The notes under the pieces are model-generated. The model did no database searches, was not told the origin of the DNA, and saw only the letters and a list, made by a program, of their open reading frames with translations. The translations under genes and the position numbers were made by a program. Positions 3-6,252 of a stretch of DNA of 6,252 bases are shown in pieces. Every line of letters starts with the position of its first letter. The first letter of the stretch is position 1. Origin of the DNA: Elusimicrobiota bacterium (GTDB lineage: Bacteria > CG03 > SLGR01 > PWQF01); the NCBI GenBank assembly GCA_003556865.1, contig PWQF01000119.1, positions 1-6,252 of the forward strand, read 5' to 3'.

Positions 3-932
3 CTGATAGGGAAAGACCTTATCTCGGTTTCCCTGGGCCAGTCCCTGGCAGCGGTCCTGCTGGTGGGGGCGGGTATCTATATTATTACCGGTGACTGGGT
101 TTTTTCACTTGCCCTCTCATCCATACCGGCAGCCACCTCTCCCACTTCAGTAATAATGGCGGTAAGGGAGATGAAGGCCAAGGGGCGGTTCCCGGAAATG
201 CTTATGGGGTCGGTAGCTTTATCTGATTTATGGACGCTGGTTATTTTTGCTTTAATTCTTGCCGTGATAAGGGGGGTCGGAGCCCCCTCTTCCGGGAATA
301 TGGCTTTTCACCTGGGCAGCGGGGTTGTTGAAATAAGCGGGGCGGTTTTTTTGGGTCTGGCAATGGGATGGCTTCTCTCTCTTTTTTCCGCTGCCATATC
401 CCACAGCTCCCAGCTTATGATTCTTACCCTGGGTTTTATACTCTTTAATACCGGTGCGGCTGTTTACCTGGGCCTCTCCTCGCTTTTATCCGCTATGGCC
501 ATGTCCGCGGCAGTAAGCAATTTAAATCCTTCCAGCTTTAAGTTTTTTAACTCCATACGATCGGTGGATTCCCCTCTTTATCTTCTTTTTTTTGTTCTGG
601 CCGGGGCAAAACTTCAGCTGGAGGGTTTAACTGCCCTGGGGCTGATAGGGTCGGCTTATATTTTTTTCCGGATGGCCGGCAAGATAGCCGGCTCCTATGC
701 CGGCTGTCTTATTGCCGATCTTCCGGCATCCATAAGGCGTAATATGGGGATAGCCCTTGCTCCCCAGGCAGGTGTGGCGCTGGGTCTTGCAGTTATACTG
801 GCCTCTGTTTATCCGGATCCCGAAAAAGGAAAAATCATACTTTCTGTTATAGTCGGGAGTACTGTTATTTTTGAAATGCTGGGCCCCTTTTTAACCCGCT
901 ACGCAATATCCAGGGCGTCCGAAAACCGGTGA
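3..932 (+). CDS. Cation:proton antiporter, CPA/KefB-NhaP-like membrane domain (5'-partial)
   Basis: This is the C-terminal 309 residues of a multi-spanning Na+(K+)/H+ exchanger. The frame is open to the window edge, so the real start lies upstream; a GTG at 63 lies inside a hydrophobic stretch and is not a credible start. Residues below are numbered from that GTG. The stretch around 22-45 (AATSPTSVIMAVRE, then AKG) matches the 'ATAPAxT..VIRE..AKGP' segment of the family. It is followed by VALSDLW (51-57), which aligns with the ion-binding 'VALDD' motif. Near the C-terminus, ALAPQAGVALGLAVIL is the typical late-helix signature. The protein ends soon after the last membrane helix, so it has no RCK/TrkA-N regulatory domain. 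The first Asp of the usual DD pair is Ser54, while Asp55 is kept. It precedes the hydrogenase operon on the same strand but is probably a separate transcription unit, because a promoter follows it. The transported ion cannot be read from the sequence. Confidence 0.85.
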   Translation: MIGKDLISVSLGQSLAAVLLVGAGIYIITGDWVFSLALSSIPAATSPTSVIMAVREMKAKGRFPEMLMGSVALSDLWTLVIFALILAVIRGVGAPSSGNMAFHLGSGVVEISGAVFLGLAMGWLLSLFSAAISHSSQLMILTLGFILFNTGAAVYLGLSSLLSAMAMSAAVSNLNPSSFKFFNSIRSVDSPLYLLFFVLAGAKLQLEGLTALGLIGSAYIFFRMAGKIAGSYAGCLIADLPASIRRNMGIALAPQAGVALGLAVILASVYPDPEKGKIILSVIVGSTVIFEMLGPFLTRYAISRASENR

Positions 933-987: not shown

Positions 988-1005
988 TTGTGACTGGTTT
1001 CACAG
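988..1005 (+). promoter_or_regulatory. Rex operator (ROP), TTGTGA-N6-TCACAG
   Basis: The 18-bp inverted repeat TTGTGACTGGTTTCACAG matches the established Rex consensus TTGTGA-N6-TCACAA at 11 of 12 arm positions, the only mismatch being the last base. It sits between the likely start site and the rex ATG, so bound Rex would block polymerase and autoregulate the operon. Rex releases its DNA when NADH/NAD+ is high, so induction under reducing conditions is expected. The assignment is strong because the gene that follows encodes Rex itself. Confidence 0.88.
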
Positions 1006-1629
1006 ATGTACAATAAACATATTGTAGAAAGACTTATTATTTATAACCGGGTACTTAAAGAGCTCAGCCGCGCCGGAATAAAGAGAGTTACCTCGGCAAT
1101 GCTTGCAGAAAAGCTTTCCAAGACCTCCAGCCAGATAAGAAGGGATTTTTCAGAGGTGGGAAAAAAAGGAAAACCCGGGGTGGGCTACAATGTTGAAGAA
1201 CTGGTGCAGGCGCTTGACAGGGATCTTGGTCTGAACAGGAAATGGGGGGTAGCCCTGGTGGGGGCAGGGAACCTGGGTCGGGCCCTTTTTTATTATCCGG
1301 GTTTTAAAAAAGAGGGTTTTGAGTTCAGGGCGGTTTTTGATTCCGACCCTTCCAAGGTGGGTAAAGTCTGGAGCGGGATAAGGATAGCCTCTACCCGGGA
1401 TTTTAAAAAAAAGATTAAGAAAAAAAATATAGAGATAGGGATTATTGCAGTTCCTGCCTCCGGGGCCCCGGAAGTTGCAAAAGGAATTATAGGTGCGGGA
1501 GTAAAGGCCCTGCTTAACTTTGCCCCTGTTACGCTGGACCTTCCCTCTGATATTTATCTGCGGTATGCGGACCTGGCCATGGATATGGAAAACCTTTCCT
1601 GCTATCTCAGCGAGAAGAAGAAAATATGA
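1006..1629 (+). CDS. rex: Redox-sensing transcriptional repressor Rex
   Basis: Rex is a cytoplasmic homodimeric repressor that reads the NADH/NAD+ ratio. The 207-residue length is normal for the family. Residues 1-78 form the winged-helix DNA-binding domain, with recognition-helix residues SSQIRRDFSE (41-50) and the wing ending in GVGYNVEEL (58-66). Residues 80 onward form the Rossmann domain: VGAGNLGRAL (85-94) is the dinucleotide loop, FDSDPSKVGK (111-120) the ribose-binding segment, and IAVPA (147-151) and NFAP (171-174) are family signatures. The last helix (about 185-203) is the domain-swapped dimer helix. The ATG at 1006 gives a normal N-terminus, but it lacks a well-placed ribosome binding site; a CTG at 994 is the alternative start. 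The stop overlaps the next gene as ATGA (1626-1629). A near-consensus Rex operator abuts the start, so the gene is very probably autoregulated and controls the hydrogenase genes downstream. Confidence 0.96.
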   Translation: MYNKHIVERLIIYNRVLKELSRAGIKRVTSAMLAEKLSKTSSQIRRDFSEVGKKGKPGVGYNVEELVQALDRDLGLNRKWGVALVGAGNLGRALFYYPGFKKEGFEFRAVFDSDPSKVGKVWSGIRIASTRDFKKKIKKKNIEIGIIAVPASGAPEVAKGIIGAGVKALLNFAPVTLDLPSDIYLRYADLAMDMENLSCYLSEKKKI

Positions 1630-2612
1630 AAGGGAGGATAGCATCTGAAGATTTCAACAGGGCACTTACCCTCTGGTCCGGGGATGCTTCTCTTTTTCTC
1701 CCCGGCCCTTCCGGGTTTATGGAGGAATTTTCCCCGGAATTAGAATACGATCTTGAAAAAGTCCCGGTCTGGGGGGGTATAAAAGAGTTTGTTTATCCCC
1801 AGAGGGGAATAGTTGCGGGGGAAGAGAAAAAAGAGATATGCCCGGTTATACTGGCAGGGATAAGAAACTGTGATTTAACGGCCCTGAACAGGGTCTTTGA
1901 TGAAATATTTTTAAGGAGAGAGCCCCAGGATACTGTTTACAGGGCCATGAGAGAATCTCTGACCCTGGTTTCAGTTGACTGCATTTCTCCCGCCCCCACC
2001 TGTTTCTGTGCAGGGGTTGGCGGTTCTCCCTACAGCAGCGGCGGGTCGGACCTTAATCTTTCCCCCGTAAAGGGGGGCTTCATTGCGGAATCTTTTTCCC
2101 CCGCCGGAGAAAAACTGCTTAAATCCATTGAATTAAGAGAAGTTAGCGGGGAAGATGAAAAAAATTACGGGCAGAGAAAAGAGCAGGCTCTTAAAGCCCT
2201 TAAACTTAACTTTAACCTTGATTATAAAAAAGACTCTTTTAAAAAAAAGATAAAGGAGAACGACGGGGAGGAGTACTGGCAGCAGAAAGGTGAAACCTGT
2301 ATGCAGTGCGGCGGCTGTAATTTTTCCTGTCCCACCTGTTACTGTAATATTTTAAGCGAGCTCTCTGATTATAAAAAACCCCTTAAGGCACTTCAGTGGG
2401 ACTCCTGCCAGTATCCCGGTTACGCCCGGGTGGCCGGAGGTTCTACTCCCCGGCCCCGCCTCTGGCAGGGCTTCAGGCACAGGTACCTTTGCAAATTTAA
2501 TCTTATGCAGGGGGAGTTTAATACTCCGGGCTGCACGGGCTGCGGAAGATGCATAATAACATGTCCGGGAAAAATAGATATGAGGGATACCGTTAAGGGT
2601 CTTTATGAATAA
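1626..2612 (+). CDS. hydB: HydB/AsrA-like 4Fe-4S dicluster electron-transfer subunit
   Basis: This 328-residue soluble iron-sulfur protein matches the beta subunit of Pyrococcus sulfhydrogenase (HydB) and AsrA of anaerobic sulfite reductase, which pass electrons between a flavin subunit and a catalytic module. Visible family marks, in order: GIRNCDLTALNRVFDEIFL (78-96), equivalent to the family's 'GVRPCDL..L' segment; DCISPAPTCFCAGVGGSP (118-135); the first ferredoxin-like motif CMQCGGCNFSCPTC (225-238; Cys225, 228, 231, 235); WDSCQYPGYARVAGG (258-272); and a second motif CTGCGRCIITCP (303-314; Cys303, 306, 309, 313). All eight cluster ligands are present. It starts with ATG overlapping the rex stop (ATGA) and is followed by its usual partner, the flavin subunit. 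No siroheme subunit (AsrC) and no soluble hydrogenase subunit follows; an Ech-type membrane hydrogenase does. A hydrogenase role is therefore favoured over sulfite reduction. Confidence 0.87.
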   Translation: MKGRIASEDFNRALTLWSGDASLFLPGPSGFMEEFSPELEYDLEKVPVWGGIKEFVYPQRGIVAGEEKKEICPVILAGIRNCDLTALNRVFDEIFLRREPQDTVYRAMRESLTLVSVDCISPAPTCFCAGVGGSPYSSGGSDLNLSPVKGGFIAESFSPAGEKLLKSIELREVSGEDEKNYGQRKEQALKALKLNFNLDYKKDSFKKKIKENDGEEYWQQKGETCMQCGGCNFSCPTCYCNILSELSDYKKPLKALQWDSCQYPGYARVAGGSTPRPRLWQGFRHRYLCKFNLMQGEFNTPGCTGCGRCIITCPGKIDMRDTVKGLYE

Positions 2613-3447
2613 AAAAATCATAAAAGAGATACCTCCCGAAAAGAATCCCTATACACCCTCCCGGGCTGTAATTAAGGAAATAATAGATGAAACCGGCTCC
2701 ATAAAGACTTTTAACCTTGAACTGGAAAAAGAGCTGGAATTTTCAACCGGCCAGTTTATTCAGCTAACAATACCAGGAGCCGGCGAATGCCCGTTTACTC
2801 CCTCATCCACCCCCGGAAAAACTAAAAATATAGATGTTACTGTAATGAAAGCCGGGGCGGCAACAGAAATACTTCATTCTAAAAAAAAGGGTTCCGTCCT
2901 GTGGGTGCGGGGCCCTTACGGTAACGGGTTTCCCCTGGATGAGCTCAGGGACAGGGAGCTTTTAATAGTGGGGGGGGGATGCGGTATGGCCCCTCTCAGG
3001 TCCCTGGTTCACGAAATAATTTCTGACAGGAACAGGTATCCCCGGGTGATTATGCTTTTCGGTTGCCGCACTCCCCGGGATATGCTTTACAAGGAGGGGG
3101 TCGGTCAGTGGGAAGAGGAGTTTGAGCTTCATAAAACAGCAGATAAGGCCTCCCCGGACTGGGAGGGAAAAGAAGGGGTGGTCACCGGACTTTTTAAGGA
3201 TATAAAAGAAAATTTCTCTAAATGTGCCGCGGTAGTGGTCGGCCCGCCGGTAATGATGAAGTTTGCCTCCCTGGAGCTTTCAAAAATGGGTATGGATGAC
3301 GAAAATATTATAGTTTCCCTGGAAAAAAATATGAGCTGCGGCTTCGGAAAATGCCGTCACTGCCTGGTGGGGCCTTATTATGTCTGCAAGGACGGCCCGG
3401 TCTTTAAATACTCACAGGTAAAGGATTTACCTAATGTCTGGGACTGA
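2605..3447 (+). CDS. hydG: HydG/AsrB-like FAD/NAD(P)-binding oxidoreductase subunit
   Basis: This 280-residue flavoprotein belongs to the ferredoxin-NADP reductase superfamily group that includes sulfhydrogenase gamma (HydG of Pyrococcus, not the [FeFe] maturase of the same name), AsrB and the dihydroorotate dehydrogenase electron-transfer subunit. The N-terminal FAD domain shows GQFIQLTIPGAGECPFTPSS (49-68) and VRGPYGNGFPL (101-111). The NAD(P) domain begins with LLIVGGGCGMAPLRSL (119-134) and ends with the VVGPPVMMKF segment (211-220). The C-terminus carries a [2Fe-2S] motif, Cys245, Cys250, Cys253 and Cys261, within MSCGFGKCRHC...C. It would oxidise or reduce NAD(P)(H) and exchange electrons with HydB; NADH versus NADPH preference cannot be settled by eye, though control by Rex hints at NADH. 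Its ATG overlaps the hydB stop by 8 nt, with AAGGG (2595-2599) 5 nt upstream. A run of nine G (2970-2978) encodes the dinucleotide loop. Confidence 0.9.
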   Translation: MNKKIIKEIPPEKNPYTPSRAVIKEIIDETGSIKTFNLELEKELEFSTGQFIQLTIPGAGECPFTPSSTPGKTKNIDVTVMKAGAATEILHSKKKGSVLWVRGPYGNGFPLDELRDRELLIVGGGCGMAPLRSLVHEIISDRNRYPRVIMLFGCRTPRDMLYKEGVGQWEEEFELHKTADKASPDWEGKEGVVTGLFKDIKENFSKCAAVVVGPPVMMKFASLELSKMGMDDENIIVSLEKNMSCGFGKCRHCLVGPYYVCKDGPVFKYSQVKDLPNVWD

Positions 3448-3862
3448 TTTTCTTTTAATAGACCTGGATAAGTGTTTCGGGTGCAGCCGCTGCGCTGATA
3501 CCGTTCCCGGCATCTACAGGGTAATAGAGGATGGTATAAGAAAGCTTATATGCCGCCGCTGCCAGAACCCTCCCTGCGTGGCGGCCTGCCCGGTGGAAGC
3601 CCTGGAAAAACCCGGGGAGGGTGATCTAAAACGGCATACTTTTATCTGTGTCTCCTGCAAGCAGTGTGCCAGCGCCTGCCCCGTAGGAGCCAACCCCCCC
3701 GCTATCCTCTCATATAAGAATTACCCCCTGCACGGGATTGATTTTCAAAGGTGCCTGAGGGTATGCAGAAAAGGGGCAGTTCAGATAAAAGATAAAATCC
3801 CCCCCGAATATACTCCCTGGGGAAAATCTTTTGCTTTTAAGGCCCGGGAGTGGAGAAAATGA
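3434..3862 (+). CDS. HycB/CooF-type polyferredoxin, apparently three [4Fe-4S] clusters
   Basis: This 142-residue iron-sulfur protein likely wires the HydB-HydG pair to the hydrogenase core. It has the layout of four-cluster electron-transfer subunits (HycB, CooF, HydN): motif 1 Cys14-Cys17-Cys20; motif 2 Cys40, 43, 48, 52 (CRRCQNPPCVAACP); motif 3 Cys72, 75, 78, 82 (CVSCKQCASACP); and a degenerate motif 4 with only Cys107 and Cys111. In that fold each cluster takes three Cys from one motif and one from its partner motif. Here clusters 14/17/20+111, 40/43/48+82 and 72/75/78+52 are complete. The fourth has lost three of its four ligands (Val24, Tyr97 and His100 stand where Cys is expected). The protein is shorter than E. 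coli HycB and has no membrane segment. Its ATG overlaps the hydG stop by 14 nt, with AAGGAT (3421-3426) at good spacing; its stop forms ATGA with echB. Confidence 0.88.
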   Translation: MSGTDFLLIDLDKCFGCSRCADTVPGIYRVIEDGIRKLICRRCQNPPCVAACPVEALEKPGEGDLKRHTFICVSCKQCASACPVGANPPAILSYKNYPLHGIDFQRCLRVCRKGAVQIKDKIPPEYTPWGKSFAFKAREWRK

Positions 3863-4764
3863 TTCTGCTGGAATATTTGGTTTATCCCGGGATGGTTTTT
3901 ATTATTATAATCTCTTTTGCTGTTTCATGGATAGACCGGAAAGTCAGTGCCCTGGTTCAGTGGAGAGTGGGGCCTCCCCCCCTGCAGCCTTTTTATGATT
4001 TTATGAAGCTTATGAAAAAAGAGACCCTTGTTCCTGAAGGGGCAAACCTTGCGGTTTACCTTATTTCCCCCGCTTTTTCTTTTGCCTCCATAGCCCTGGT
4101 CTTTCTTATACTTTACCGCACCAATCTTACGGCCTCCGCTTTTATAGGGGATATTTTTGTGGTGGTATATCTTCTTATCATACCGGTCCTTTCCTTTATA
4201 ATGGCCGGGGCCTCTTCTGCAAACCCCCTGGCGTCTCTGGGAGCCTCCAGGGAAATGAAAATGGCCTTATCCTATGAGCTGCCTTTTATATTGGCACTGG
4301 GGGCTTTAATAATAAATACGGGAGGAAGCCCGGATTTAGGTCATATAATCAGTTACCAGCGCTTATACGGCCCAGCGCTGAACTCGTTTTCCGGGATACT
4401 CTCCTTCCTGGTTCTGATAATATGTTTCCAGGCTAAAATGATGCAGGTCCCTTTTGACATATCTGAAGCGGAGCAGGAGATAATGGGCGGGACGCTTATA
4501 GAGTATTCCGGCCCCCCGCTGGCTTTTTTTATTCTTTCCCGCTGGGCCCTTATGGCGCTCCTTCCCTTTATGGCGGTAATTCTTTTCTGGGGAGGGATAG
4601 CAACTTTTCCCGGACTGCTTAAATATATAGGGGTACTGGTTATTTTTATATTAATAAAAAATACCAACCCCCGTCTCCGTATTAATCAGACCCTCAGGCT
4701 TTTCTGGGGTCCGGTTACTGCGGTTGCGGCTTTAAGCGCGGTTCTGGCAGCGGCGGGACTATGA
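3859..4764 (+). CDS. echB: EchB/HyfC/NuoH-like membrane subunit of energy-converting hydrogenase
   Basis: This 301-residue integral membrane protein corresponds to EchB, HycD/HyfC, MbhM and complex I NuoH, the subunit that joins the peripheral catalytic arm to the ion-translocating membrane arm. Roughly eight hydrophobic helices are visible. Signatures: WIDRKVSALVQWRVGPP (24-40), with Asp26 where complex I often has Glu; LQPFYDFMKLMKKE (42-55); SREMKMALSYELPF (130-143); VPFDISEAEQEIMGGTLIEYSG (197-218), with the acidic residues Asp200, Glu203, Glu205 and Glu207 typical of the channel-facing loop; and NPRLRINQTLRLFWGP (270-285). I chose the ATG at 3859, which forms an ATGA overlap with the ferredoxin stop and has GGGAG (3846-3850) 8 nt upstream, like the following junctions. 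A GTG at 3850 would add three residues but has poorer support. No NuoL/EchA-like subunit precedes it. Confidence 0.93.
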   Translation: MILLEYLVYPGMVFIIIISFAVSWIDRKVSALVQWRVGPPPLQPFYDFMKLMKKETLVPEGANLAVYLISPAFSFASIALVFLILYRTNLTASAFIGDIFVVVYLLIIPVLSFIMAGASSANPLASLGASREMKMALSYELPFILALGALIINTGGSPDLGHIISYQRLYGPALNSFSGILSFLVLIICFQAKMMQVPFDISEAEQEIMGGTLIEYSGPPLAFFILSRWALMALLPFMAVILFWGGIATFPGLLKYIGVLVIFILIKNTNPRLRINQTLRLFWGPVTAVAALSAVLAAAGL

Positions 4765-5201
4765 TATCCGGAAAGATCGGAAAATCAATATGGCTTTACC
4801 ATTTCGGGGCGGCATCCTGCAACAACTGCGATATAGAGATACTGGATACCCTCACCCCCCGTTTTGACGCCGAAAGACTGGGAATAAAGCTTATAGGCAG
4901 CATACGCCACGCCGACTGCATGCTTGTTACCGGGGTGGTAAACAGCAGGAGCCTGCCCCGTCTCAAGGAAATCTATTCCCAGGCCCCCCGTCCCTTTTAC
5001 GTGGCGGCGGTAGGGACCTGTTCCCTGGCAACGGGAATTTTTAAGGGTTCATATAATGTGGAAGGCCCGGTGGACAGGCATATACCGGTAGATGTGTATA
5101 TACCCGGCTGCCCCCCGCGGCCGGAAGTAATTATATCGGCAATGATTAAGTTAATTGAAAAGATTGAAGGGGAAAAGAAAAAAGGTATAAATAAATCATG
5201 A
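4761..5201 (+). CDS. echC: EchC/NuoB-like [NiFe] hydrogenase small subunit
   Basis: This 146-residue subunit holds the [4Fe-4S] cluster that hands electrons to the Ni-Fe site, equivalent to EchC, HycG and NuoB. The cluster ligands are Cys20 and Cys23 in GAASCNNCDIEIL (16-28), Cys87 in VGTCSLATGIF (84-94) and Cys117 in YIPGCPPRPEVI (113-124). These are single Cys at the first position (CxxC), as in group 4 hydrogenases, rather than the CC pair of complex I NuoB. An extra Cys53 has no assigned role. The protein is short, as expected for this group, and lacks the additional C-terminal cluster domain of the small subunits of soluble and uptake hydrogenases. It starts with ATG in an ATGA overlap with echB and ends in an ATGA overlap with echD, so the catalytic and membrane subunits are translationally coupled. 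Confidence 0.94.
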   Translation: MISGKIGKSIWLYHFGAASCNNCDIEILDTLTPRFDAERLGIKLIGSIRHADCMLVTGVVNSRSLPRLKEIYSQAPRPFYVAAVGTCSLATGIFKGSYNVEGPVDRHIPVDVYIPGCPPRPEVIISAMIKLIEKIEGEKKKGINKS

Positions 5202-5623
5202 AGGAAATTTTAGAACTGATAAAAAAGAAGCTGGGCAAAAATATAATAGAGATAAAGCAGCCCCGGAAAAAGAGGGTTTACATAGAGATAAAAAGAGAAG
5301 CCCTGAGGCCGGCGGCCGACTTTCTTTTTAATTCCCTTAAATGCCGATTCTCAACTGCATCGGGAATAGATGAAAAAGATTTTTTTGAAATATTATATCA
5401 TTTTTCCCTTGACCCTAAGGGCCTCTTTATAAACCTGAGGGTAAAAACAGATAAGGATAGGCCTGAGGTGGAAACTGTTGCAGATATTATTAAGGGTGCC
5501 CGCTGGATCGAGAGGGAGATGCATGAACTGATGGGCGTGGGCTTTAAGGGAAGGGAGGATTTAAAAAACCTTCTTTTATCTTCGGATTATAGGGGTCCCG
5601 CGCATCCGCTGAGGAAAAAATGA
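5198..5623 (+). CDS. echD: EchD/NuoC-like (30 kDa) hydrogenase subunit
   Basis: This 141-residue protein is the NuoC/HycE-N-terminal equivalent that braces the large and small subunits in the hydrophilic arm; it binds no cofactor. The N-terminal half is Lys-rich and poorly conserved. The family part is ILYHFSLDPKGLFINLRVKT (65-84), then ARWIEREMHELMGVGFKGRE (101-120) and the tail DYRGPAHPLRKK, which closely parallel 'W.ERE..D..G..F.GHP.L..L' in NuoC. Here Met-His replaces the usual residues before Glu110-Leu111, and Lys-Gly-Arg-Glu replaces the usual Gly-His-Pro, as often seen in Ech-type versions. It is separate from the large subunit, unlike the fused HycE of E. coli. It overlaps both neighbours as ATGA; an AAAGG (5181-5185) lies somewhat far upstream (12 nt), so coupled re-initiation is likely. 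Confidence 0.9.
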   Translation: MKEILELIKKKLGKNIIEIKQPRKKRVYIEIKREALRPAADFLFNSLKCRFSTASGIDEKDFFEILYHFSLDPKGLFINLRVKTDKDRPEVETVADIIKGARWIEREMHELMGVGFKGREDLKNLLLSSDYRGPAHPLRKK

Positions 5624-6252
5624 GCGGTAAAGATAAAGAAAATAATATAACTGAAATACCCATAGGACCTTATCATCCTTTACAGGAAGAGCCGGAGTTT
5701 TTCCGGCTCCGGGTTGAGGGTGAGAAGGTGGTGGGACTGGATATAGAAATCGGCTACAATCACAGGGGTATTGAAAAACTGGCTGAAACCAAGCATTACG
5801 ACCAGGTTCTTTTTCTTGTTGAAAGGATATGCGGCATATGCTCTACATCACATCCCTTTGCCTATGTAAATGCAATAGAGGAGATCTGCGGACTGGATAT
5901 ACCCGAACGGGCAAAATATATAAGAAGTATTGTCGGAGAGATGGAAAGAATACATTCCCATCTTCTCTGGCTGGGCCTGGCCGGCCATTTCCTGGGTTAT
6001 AATACAGTATGGATGTGGTGCTGGAAATACAGGGAGCCCCTCCTGGAGCTCTGTGAAAAGATATTCGGCAACCGCCAGCACTATGCTATGATGAAGATCG
6101 GGGGGGTAAGAAGGGATATCAGCGATGAGCAGGCAAAAGAACTTAAAAAAGGTGTGGATGAACTGCTTCCCAAGCTGGATATGCTGACAAAAGCCATAGA
6201 AGATGATCCCCTTCTGCGGGCCCGGCTTAAGATTGCCGGTACTCTTCCCCGC
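5620..6252 (+). CDS. echE: EchE/NuoD-like [NiFe] hydrogenase large (catalytic) subunit, 3'-partial
   Basis: The first 211 residues of the catalytic subunit are present; the frame is open to the window end. IPIGPYHPLQEEPEFF (13-28), IGYNHRGIEKLAE (44-56) and GEMERIHSHLLWLGLAGH (106-123) are common to the NuoD/EchE superfamily. The deciding feature is ERICGICSTSHP (68-79): Cys71 and Cys74 are the N-terminal (L1) pair that binds the Ni-Fe centre, with His78 following. Complex I NuoD lacks these Cys, so this is a true [NiFe] hydrogenase and not a complex I relic. The C-terminal (L2) CxxC pair and any maturation cleavage site fall outside the window. The ATG forms ATGA with the echD stop and has GAGG (5611-5614) 5 nt upstream. 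Reaction: reversible 2H+ + 2e- = H2 on the cytoplasmic side of the membrane. The sub-clade within group 4 needs a tree of the full protein. Confidence 0.95.
   Translation, partial: MSGKDKENNITEIPIGPYHPLQEEPEFFRLRVEGEKVVGLDIEIGYNHRGIEKLAETKHYDQVLFLVERICGICSTSHPFAYVNAIEEICGLDIPERAKYIRSIVGEMERIHSHLLWLGLAGHFLGYNTVWMWCWKYREPLLELCEKIFGNRQHYAMMKIGGVRRDISDEQAKELKKGVDELLPKLDMLTKAIEDDPLLRARLKIAGTLPR

What the first reader, a model, noticed from the sequence alone, without database searches (positions are those of the whole stretch)
1006..6252. Hybrid hydrogenase operon: HydB-HydG NAD(P)H module wired to an Ech-type membrane [NiFe] hydrogenase, under Rex
Seen: gene order rex, hydB, hydG, polyferredoxin, echB, echC, echD, echE, all overlapping. 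Known: classical Ech takes electrons from ferredoxin, while HydB-HydG pairs normally serve soluble sulfhydrogenase (hydBGDA in Pyrococcus, same B-G order) or sulfite reductase with AsrC. Here the soluble catalytic subunits are replaced by a membrane-bound energy-converting core. Inference: the complex may couple NAD(P)H/H2 electron exchange to ion movement, for instance ion-gradient-driven H2 release from NADH or the reverse, possibly with ferredoxin as a third partner. Related arrangements may already be known from metagenome-derived genomes; I cannot check this.
Basis: partly seen in the sequence, partly recalled or inferred. Interest (0 to 1): 0.8.

Follow-up and report, generated by a model that had tools for sequence, protein, structure and literature searches.

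The report
NADH-fed ion-pumping hydrogen enzyme
This stretch of an uncultured bacterium's DNA encodes a membrane enzyme that probably makes or uses hydrogen gas while moving ions and looks plugged into the cell's NAD(P)H pool; the same gene set recurs in many bacterial phyla, and I found no laboratory test of it.

Summary
Window 1006-6252 reads rex-hydB-hydG-Fe/S-NuoH-NuoB-NuoC-NuoD; each gene overlaps the next by 4-14 bases, and a Rex-operator-like site (988-1005) precedes rex. The window is most likely Elusimicrobiota. The nearest fetched relative shows the rest of the operon: a full Mrp antiporter arm with MbhD/E, a HycF/NuoI-type subunit, a protease and Hyp maturases. So this is an Mbh-type (Mrp-linked) group 4 [NiFe] hydrogenase, not a bare Ech. 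37 of 80 HydB-relative loci keep the same order ahead of this core. In three phylum surveys, 62 genomes with the core gave no readable case without HydBG. HydG copies form one clade and co-diverge with the catalytic subunit. The 'co-regulation only' refuter is not met, apart from one ambiguous genome. Best reading: a membrane NAD(P)H:H+ oxidoreductase. Rex control suggests NADH disposal as H2, helped by low H2 or the ion gradient; physical complex, carrier, direction and pumping are inferred. Precedent: one such locus (asrA/asrB/cooF/Mo-enzyme form, Saganbacteria) was described in 2019 with unknown donor. The breadth, tight linkage and Rex control appear new and question the putative ferredoxin role of at least one 'group 4g' enzyme.

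The parts
988..1005 (+). Rex-operator-like palindrome TTGTGACTGGTTTCACAG directly before rex
   Evidence: the DNA search, 1 of 12 mismatches, expected 0.14 at up to 2 mismatches; similar sites in 13 of 37 linked relatives
1006..1629 (+). rex, redox-sensing (NADH/NAD+) repressor
   Evidence: NCBIfam NF003995 E 4e-66 above cut-off; PF06971, PF02629
1626..2612 (+). hydB/asrA-like Fe-S subunit
   Evidence: PF17179; PDB 9nez_B sulfhydrogenase beta E 1e-32, 3e-47 with the family profile
2605..3447 (+). hydG/asrB-like FAD and NAD(P)-binding subunit with a [2Fe-2S] site
   Evidence: PF00970, PF00175, PF10418; PDB 9nez_C E 1e-50; C245, C250, C253, C261 invariant in 16 rows
3434..3862 (+). HycB/ArrB-family Fe-S connector (142 aa)
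   Evidence: Fer4 families; family profile: ArrB 6cz7_B 3e-22, AOR Fe-S subunit 5e-22, HycB of FHL 1.5e-20, MbhN only 7e-5; 8 invariant cysteines
3850..4764 (+). NuoH/MbhM (EchB-type) membrane subunit, GTG start
   Evidence: PF00146 E 1e-61
4761..5201 (+). NuoB/MbhJ (EchC-type) small subunit
   Evidence: PF01058; best PDB match MbhJ 6cfw_J E 5e-45
5198..5623 (+). NuoC/MbhK (EchD-type) subunit
   Evidence: PF00329 E 9e-25
5620..6252 (+). NuoD/MbhL (EchE-type) [NiFe] large subunit, N-terminal 211 residues, open at the window end
   Evidence: PF00374 and PF00346; best PDB match MbhL 6cfw_L E 1e-57

Best explanation
The operon encodes a membrane-bound, Mrp-linked (Mbh-type) group 4 [NiFe] hydrogenase whose electron-entry module is a dedicated HydB-HydG pair. 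Electrons would pass between NAD(P)H and FAD and [2Fe-2S] in HydG, the Fe-S clusters of HydB, the HycB-type connector, a HycF/NuoI-type subunit (end of operon, seen in relatives), NuoB/MbhJ and the Ni-Fe site of the large subunit, coupled through NuoH/MbhM to an Mrp antiporter arm. In layout it is a formate hydrogenlyase-like chain with HydBG in place of (or, in some relatives, beside) a molybdenum-enzyme subunit, on a Na+/H+-translocating arm. Most likely physiological use: when NADH/NAD+ is high, Rex releases the operon and the enzyme disposes of NADH electrons as H2, with the slightly uphill step paid by low H2 or by the ion gradient; the reverse (H2-driven NAD+ reduction with ion export) should also be possible. 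Shown here: gene content, order, conservation, motifs, co-divergence, Rex-like sites. Inferred: one physical complex, NADH rather than NADPH, direction, ion movement.
For: 37 of 80 HydB-relative loci keep hydB-hydG-fdx-nuoH in one order and strand over at least 10 named phyla. Omnitrophota: 47 of 193 genomes have this large-subunit class; 39 have HydG on the same contig 3.1-4.2 kb away; 5 are split at contig ends with both halves seen; 3 cannot be read upstream. Elusimicrobiota: 13 of 16 genomes have the large subunit and all 13 have HydG, 10 on one contig and 3 split at contig ends. Bacteroidota: 2 of 296 have it, both with HydG close by. HydG of linked loci lies in one clade, 100/99. HydG and large-subunit distances correlate, r 0.90, and 0.81 for cross-phylum pairs, 0 of 5000 permutations as high. 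Both Ni motifs in 31 of 31 full large subunits; four [2Fe-2S] cysteines in 36 of 37 HydG, the 37th being a cut ORF. HypA, HypF, HypC, HypD, a HypE-like protein, a HycI-type protease and a HycF-like subunit follow in the same gene run of L001's contig. Rex-like sites in 13 of 37 linked loci, 0.56 expected, 1 of 40 unlinked.
Against: No activity, purification or interface evidence exists here. The FDX model was of low confidence (pLDDT 69) and had no fold match at E 0.001. No multimer prediction could be run. In genome G327 (L014) hydBG lies mid-contig, away from a Mo-enzyme-FDX-Mbh cluster near another contig's end. NAD versus NADP specificity was not tested. Of 8 carrier genomes searched for PF00374, 5 have a further match elsewhere, so this is often not the only [NiFe] hydrogenase candidate. 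The phylum surveys found weaker large-subunit homologues without this HydG (second class, and seven at 361-380 bits). The 13 Rex-like sites include near-copies (L032, L033). NADH to H2 is uphill at standard potentials (recalled).
Confidence: 0.67

Rival explanations
1. Ferredoxin is an obligatory third partner: the HycB-type connector or the HycF-like subunit takes ferredoxin electrons too, so that the complex joins NAD(P)H, ferredoxin and H2 (confurcation-like, or an Rnf-like ferredoxin:NAD+ step with the Ni site as overflow).
For: Two small Fe-S proteins are in the operon; Mbh of Pyrococcus, the nearest solved relative of the catalytic subunits, is ferredoxin-dependent (recalled; passages of PMC8542988, say the same of Mbh).
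Against: HydG matches carry one FAD/NAD(P) module; no second flavin subunit of NfnB, HdrA or NuoF type appears among the Pfam matches of the window or of the L001 operon genes scanned.
Confidence: 0.15
2. Co-regulation only: HydBG is a separate soluble NAD(P)H oxidoreductase (for example reducing ferredoxin) and the membrane hydrogenase uses ferredoxin as usual.
For: HydBG can occur with other partners: 43 of 80 loci had no core hit, at least three of them (L013, L019, L021) because the contig ends; HydB-HydG fusions occur in L042, L051, L067 without a NuoH-type gene in the locus; one genome has the pair on another contig (L014/G327).
Against: Dedicated HydG clade, no readable core-without-HydBG case in 62 genomes of three phyla, cross-phylum co-divergence; a second Mbh-like class in Omnitrophota shows no such HydG in 6 of 6 genomes that have that class alone.
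Confidence: 0.13
3. Uptake direction: the enzyme mainly oxidises H2 and reduces NAD(P)+, storing the energy drop as an ion gradient.
For: The chain is in principle reversible; thermodynamics favour this direction at high H2 (recalled).
Against: Rex repressors release their targets at high NADH/NAD+ (recalled), and Rex genes or Rex-like sites accompany many of these operons including the window.
Confidence: 0.2

Closest known systems
Saganbacteria RX5A group 4 hydrogenase locus with asrA, asrB, cooF and a Mo-oxidoreductase (PMC6349859; passages read)
   Same: Group 4 core, Mrp antiporter-like subunits, AsrA/AsrB (HydB/HydG family) and a CooF-annotated Fe-S protein; relatives named in Omnitrophica and Zixibacteria; authors suggest an oxidoreductase module.
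   Different: Reported for one lineage and with a Mo-enzyme; donor called unknown; no NAD(P)H reading, survey or Rex site in the passages read.
Pyrococcus furiosus Mbh (PDB 6cfw)
   Same: MbhJ and MbhL are the best PDB matches of small and large subunits; Mrp arm in relatives.
   Different: Mbh takes ferredoxin and has no HydBG (both recalled).
Pyrococcus sulfhydrogenase I, group 3b (PDB 9nez)
   Same: HydB and HydG electron-entry pair.
   Different: Soluble HydD-HydA catalytic pair (recalled); here the core is of complex-I type.
HydDB group 4g (PMC5037454, PMC8542988; passages read)
   Same: The only large-subunit hit (E <= 1e-60) in the Tenebribacter mawsonii genome is the HydBG-linked one (L029/G323); PMC8542988 calls that genus's Mrp-linked enzyme group 4g.
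   Different: HydDB lists 4g as ferredoxin-coupled (putative), undetermined role; HydB is not found in the text of PMC8542988 (0 occurrences).
E. coli formate hydrogenlyase (PDB 7z0s)
   Same: HycB-family and HycF-type small Fe-S subunits with a group 4 core.
   Different: Formate dehydrogenase replaced or joined by HydBG; Mrp arm present in relatives.

Membership tests
Group 4 [NiFe] hydrogenase | Complex-I-like small, large and NuoH subunits with both CxxC Ni-ligand motifs in the large subunit | tested here: met
   Window has the first motif only (truncated); 31 of 31 full-length relatives have both
Mrp-linked Mbh type | MbhD/E and Mrp antiporter subunits in the operon | tested here: met
   In relatives only: L001 has antiporter subunits, MbhD/E, MrpB, C, D, E, F and G (L124); 31 of 37 linked loci show an antiporter hit and 24 of 37 a MrpB hit in the fetched DNA
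Ech (group 4e) | Six-subunit core without Mrp subunits, ferredoxin donor (recalled) | tested here: not met
   Mrp module present in relatives
Group 3b sulfhydrogenase | HydB and HydG with soluble HydD and HydA | tested here: not met
   HydB and HydG present but below the NCBIfam equivalog cut-offs (121 of 690 and 173 of 650 bits); core is NuoB/NuoD type
Anaerobic sulfite reductase AsrABC | AsrA, AsrB and AsrC | tested here: not met
   Below cut-offs (AsrA 103 of 323, AsrB 226 of 289 bits); no AsrC model among the NCBIfam matches listed for the nine window proteins
HydDB group 4g | Placement by HydDB reference set | not testable with these tools
   HydDB tool and reference set not held; indirect link through L029/G323
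Rex regulon | Rex gene and TTGTGA-N6-TCACAA-type operator upstream (consensus recalled) | tested here: met
   Window 988-1005; 13 of 37 linked relatives; binding not tested

The most novel reading that the evidence does not exclude
A widespread, unnamed respiratory complex: an NAD(P)H:H+ oxidoreductase of the complex I superfamily that gained its NAD(P)H entry through a PyrK/HydG-type flavin module instead of NuoEF, is switched by Rex, and reversibly trades NADH, H2 and a Na+/H+ gradient in uncultured anaerobes of at least ten phyla. It would replace the putative ferredoxin role of at least part of hydrogenase group 4g.
Probability: 0.55. Interest if true: 0.8.

Novelty: new variant of a known kind. 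Interest (0 to 1): 0.63.

Why it matters
HydDB lists group 4g hydrogenases as of undetermined role and putatively ferredoxin-coupled (PMC5037454, passages), and a MAG study models energy conservation on that reading (PMC8542988, passages). If many of them are fed by NAD(P)H, the energy budgets of Omnitrophota, Elusimicrobiota, Cloacimonadota and others change from gaining to possibly spending ion gradient when H2 is made. It would also show a second way of attaching an NAD(P)H module to the complex I core. The question is directly testable by heterologous expression or membrane assays.

Tried and rejected
Chance adjacency: rejected by the survey and the trees. Bare Ech: rejected by the Mrp and MbhD/E genes in relatives. 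'Polyferredoxin': rejected. Hydrogenase-related complex without Ni: rejected by both CxxC motifs in relatives and the Hyp genes. Absence of a NuoI-like subunit: first suspected, then a candidate was found at the operon end (L124 754-1428; best PDB match FHL subunit 6). FDX structure: AlphaFold model of low confidence, no fold match at E 0.001. 'No other hydrogenase, so this must be the NADH outlet': not claimed. 5 of 8 carriers have a further PF00374 match, and PMC8542988 lists an [FeFe] enzyme for Tenebribacter where one search found none in G323, so my [FeFe] absences are weak. Literature: ten searches; of the five papers whose passages I read (PMC6349859, PMC8542988, PMC5037454, PMC6305446, PMC11227167) only PMC6349859 describes AsrA/AsrB with a group 4 core; the other listed papers were seen as listings only, and the library lacks most subscription papers and all preprints. 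The large-subunit tree has only two named references and long branches (PfMbhL, HycE, L108, L109), so its deep order is not used.
Full report
What is in the window. One search gives the ORFs; name them. From 1006 on, all on +: rex, hydB/asrA-like, hydG/asrB-like, a 142-aa Fe-S protein, NuoH, NuoB, NuoC and the first 211 residues of a NuoD-type [NiFe] large subunit. Successive genes overlap by 4, 8, 14, 13, 4, 4 and 4 bases. The best solved relatives are the beta and gamma subunits of Pyrococcus sulfhydrogenase for HydB and HydG (9nez_B, 9nez_C) and MbhJ and MbhL of Pyrococcus Mbh for the small and large subunits (6cfw). The Fe-S connector matches HycB3 of a CO2 reductase best on its own (2e-8); its family profile matches ArrB and AOR Fe-S subunits best (3e-22, 5e-22), then HycB of formate hydrogenlyase (1.5e-20), and MbhN only at 7e-5. 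By eye on the printed alignments, the invariant HydB cysteines of A1 and the four [2Fe-2S] cysteines of HydG line up with cysteines of the Pyrococcus proteins. The closest named HydB relatives are Elusimicrobiota MAG proteins, so the window is most likely from that phylum; no genome is held for it.

Regulation. A site TTGTGACTGGTTTCACAG lies at 988-1005, ending just before the rex ATG; 1 of 12 fixed positions differs from TTGTGA-N6-TCACAA (consensus recalled); 0.14 sites are expected at up to 2 mismatches. In relatives, 13 of 37 linked loci have such a site within -300 to +60 of hydB or of an adjacent rex, against 0.56 expected from mononucleotide shuffles, and 1 of 40 unlinked loci. Three of the 80 loci (fused HydB-HydG, labelled HydG: L042, L051, L067) dropped out of that count. 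The 13 include near-copies (L032, L033), and several loci have little upstream DNA. The one unlinked locus with a site, L021, itself has hydB-hydG followed by a Mo-enzyme-like ORF near its contig end.

Relatives. The genome scan kept the best 80 of 428 confirmed loci, chosen by HydB similarity. With the window proteins as queries, 37 of 80 carry hydB, hydG, fdx and nuoH in that order on one strand. By phylum label these are Bacteroidota 10, Omnitrophota 8, Elusimicrobiota 3, Nitrospirota 3, Planctomycetota 2, Thermotogota 2, Cloacimonadota 2, one each of Latescibacterota, Fidelibacterota and Caldifarciminota, one WOR-1 and three unplaced. All 31 full large subunits have both Ni motifs. 36 of 37 HydG have the four cluster cysteines; the 37th (L031) is a cut ORF. 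In four (L006, L009, L024, L027) a molybdopterin-enzyme-like ORF sits between hydG and fdx (Pfam run for L024 only). L013, L019 and L021 show hydB-hydG and a similar-looking ORF and then the contig ends.

Whole operon. In L001 the genes after the large subunit are an antiporter-like subunit, MbhD/MbhE, MrpB, an NuoK-type subunit (MrpC), MrpD-type, MrpE and MrpF. The continuation L124 adds MrpG, a dicluster Fe-S protein whose best PDB match is formate hydrogenlyase subunit 6 (5e-21), then FwdF (4e-17), NuoI (5e-14) and MbhN (4e-12), a weakly matching HycI-type protease (26.6 bits, cut-off 23), HypA, HypF, HypC, HypD and an AIR-synthase-family protein in the HypE position. So this relative encodes a complete-looking, maturable [NiFe] hydrogenase with an ion-translocating arm.

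How tight is the link? A2 is an alignment of 16 linked large subunits, A3 of 16 HydG. Elusimicrobiota, 16 genomes: large subunit (E <= 1e-30) in 13, HydG above 230 bits in 14. All 13 have HydG, 10 on the same contig; in 3 the operon is cut at contig ends with both halves seen. The 14th (G015) has hydB-hydG-fdx-nuoH-nuoB-nuoC up to the contig end. One of the 13 (G022) has only a short, weak large-subunit match (109 bits) at a contig end. Omnitrophota, 193 genomes: 47 have the linked class (45 above 660 bits, two partial). 39 have HydG on the same contig at 3.07-4.23 kb; 5 are split with both halves at contig ends; 2 start at a contig's beginning; 1 reads N upstream. One genome (G508) has hydB, hydG, fdx and nuoH up to a contig end. 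A second large-subunit class (442-473 bits) occurs in 23 genomes, 17 of which also have the linked class; of the 6 with the second class alone, 0 have this HydG at E <= 1e-95. In the one example read (L108) none of the HydB, HydG or FDX queries hits in 14 kb. Seven further genomes have weaker matches (361-380 bits, each with an in-frame stop) and no such HydG; they were not examined. The exception in kind is L014/G327: hydB-hydG mid-contig followed by other ORFs (not annotated), while the Mo-enzyme-like, fdx and Mbh genes lie near the end of another contig.

Trees. Of 80 loci plus the window, 74 HydG rows went into the tree; seven loci (L036, L041, L042, L051, L057, L067, L074) were dropped for lack of a HydG ORF over 100 bits and under 500 aa. 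All 38 linked rows fall in one branch of 42 rows (100/99), whose other four are L013, L014, L019 and L021. The large-subunit tree of 49 rows separates 45 rows from four others (99/99), but those four have long branches; the 45 include L107 from the ambiguous genome and rows whose HydBG lies on another contig piece. Pairwise distances of HydG and large subunit over 31 loci correlate at r 0.90; for 321 cross-phylum pairs r is 0.81; 0 of 5000 permutations reached either value. Shared cross-phylum groupings (Thermotogota with Fidelibacterota; Bacteroidota with Cloacimonadota; Nitrospirota with part of Omnitrophota) are seen in both trees, so the module seems to move as a unit.

Mechanism. Shown: parts, order, motifs, linkage, Rex-like sites. 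Inferred: electrons pass NAD(P)H - HydG - HydB - HycB-type connector - HycF-like - MbhJ - NiFe. With standard potentials of about -320 mV for NADH and -414 mV for H2 (recalled), H2 from NADH costs about 18 kJ/mol at standard state, roughly one ion at a normal membrane potential, and nothing at low H2. Rex control (derepression at high NADH, recalled) argues for NADH disposal. In 22 carrier genomes that I chose, RnfC exceeds its cut-off in 18 and an [FeFe] hydrogenase match (E <= 1e-20) was found in 6. The 16 without one may be incomplete: PMC8542988 lists a group C1 [FeFe] enzyme for Tenebribacter, yet one search found none in G323. In 5 of 8 carriers searched, PF00374 also matches at a second place. 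Rnf making NADH from ferredoxin and this complex making H2 from NADH would form a plausible pair.

Known or new. Passages of PMC6349859 describe one locus in Saganbacteria RX5A with a group 4 hydrogenase, Mrp antiporter-like subunits, a Mo-oxidoreductase, cooF, asrA and asrB, and speak of unknown electron donors. That is the same kind of locus in its Mo-enzyme form. Passages of PMC8542988 assign group 4g Mrp-linked hydrogenases to Cloacimonadota and Omnitrophota and describe Mbh as ferredoxin-dependent; the genome of one of its species, Tenebribacter mawsonii (L029/G323), has a single large-subunit hit at E <= 1e-60, and it is the HydBG-linked one. HydDB (PMC5037454, passages) lists 4g as ferredoxin-coupled (putative), undetermined role. 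None of the other passages I read described the combination. So: new variant of a known kind, with a precedent; the extent and tight linkage appear unreported in what my ten searches could reach.

Noticed in passing
window 3-932: C-terminal part of a membrane transporter-like ORF upstream of rex; only a weak match to Na+/H+ exchanger 7 (E 9e-4), no Pfam match; no hit in L001.
   Followed up: partly
L006, L009, L024, L027; L013, L019, L021; L107: A molybdopterin-oxidoreductase-like ORF between hydG and fdx, or after hydG at a contig end, so some relatives may join NAD(P)H, formate or another substrate and H2 in one complex.
   Followed up: partly
L108 (G319:C45) and 22 other Omnitrophota genomes: A second Mbh-like hydrogenase class; in L108 antiporter genes come first and the second Ni motif reads DPCFSCTD, with no HydBG hit in the locus.
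   Followed up: partly
G500, G490, G396, G471, G452, G441, G519: Seven Omnitrophota genomes have weaker large-subunit matches (361-380 bits), each with an in-frame stop and no HydG of this clade; nature unknown.
   Followed up: no
L042, L051, L067: HydB and HydG fused in one ORF, with no NuoH-type core gene found in the locus.
   Followed up: no
L014 9716-11650 and L107: In genome G327 the hydB-hydG pair and the Mo-enzyme-FDX-Mbh cluster lie on different contigs; real separation or assembly effect not settled.
   Followed up: partly
G003:C13 242-279 kb: Five [FeFe]-hydrogenase matches lie within about 25 kb on either side of the HydBG-Mbh genes in a Bacteroidota genome.
   Followed up: no
L026, L032, L033, L037, L052, L054, L077: In these Bacteroidota loci rex is divergent from hydB; Rex-like sites lie in or beside the stretch between the two in 6 of the 7 (not L037).
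   Followed up: partly
L029/G323: PMC8542988 lists a group C1 [FeFe] hydrogenase for Tenebribacter, but the PF02906 search (E <= 1e-20) found none in this genome.
   Followed up: no
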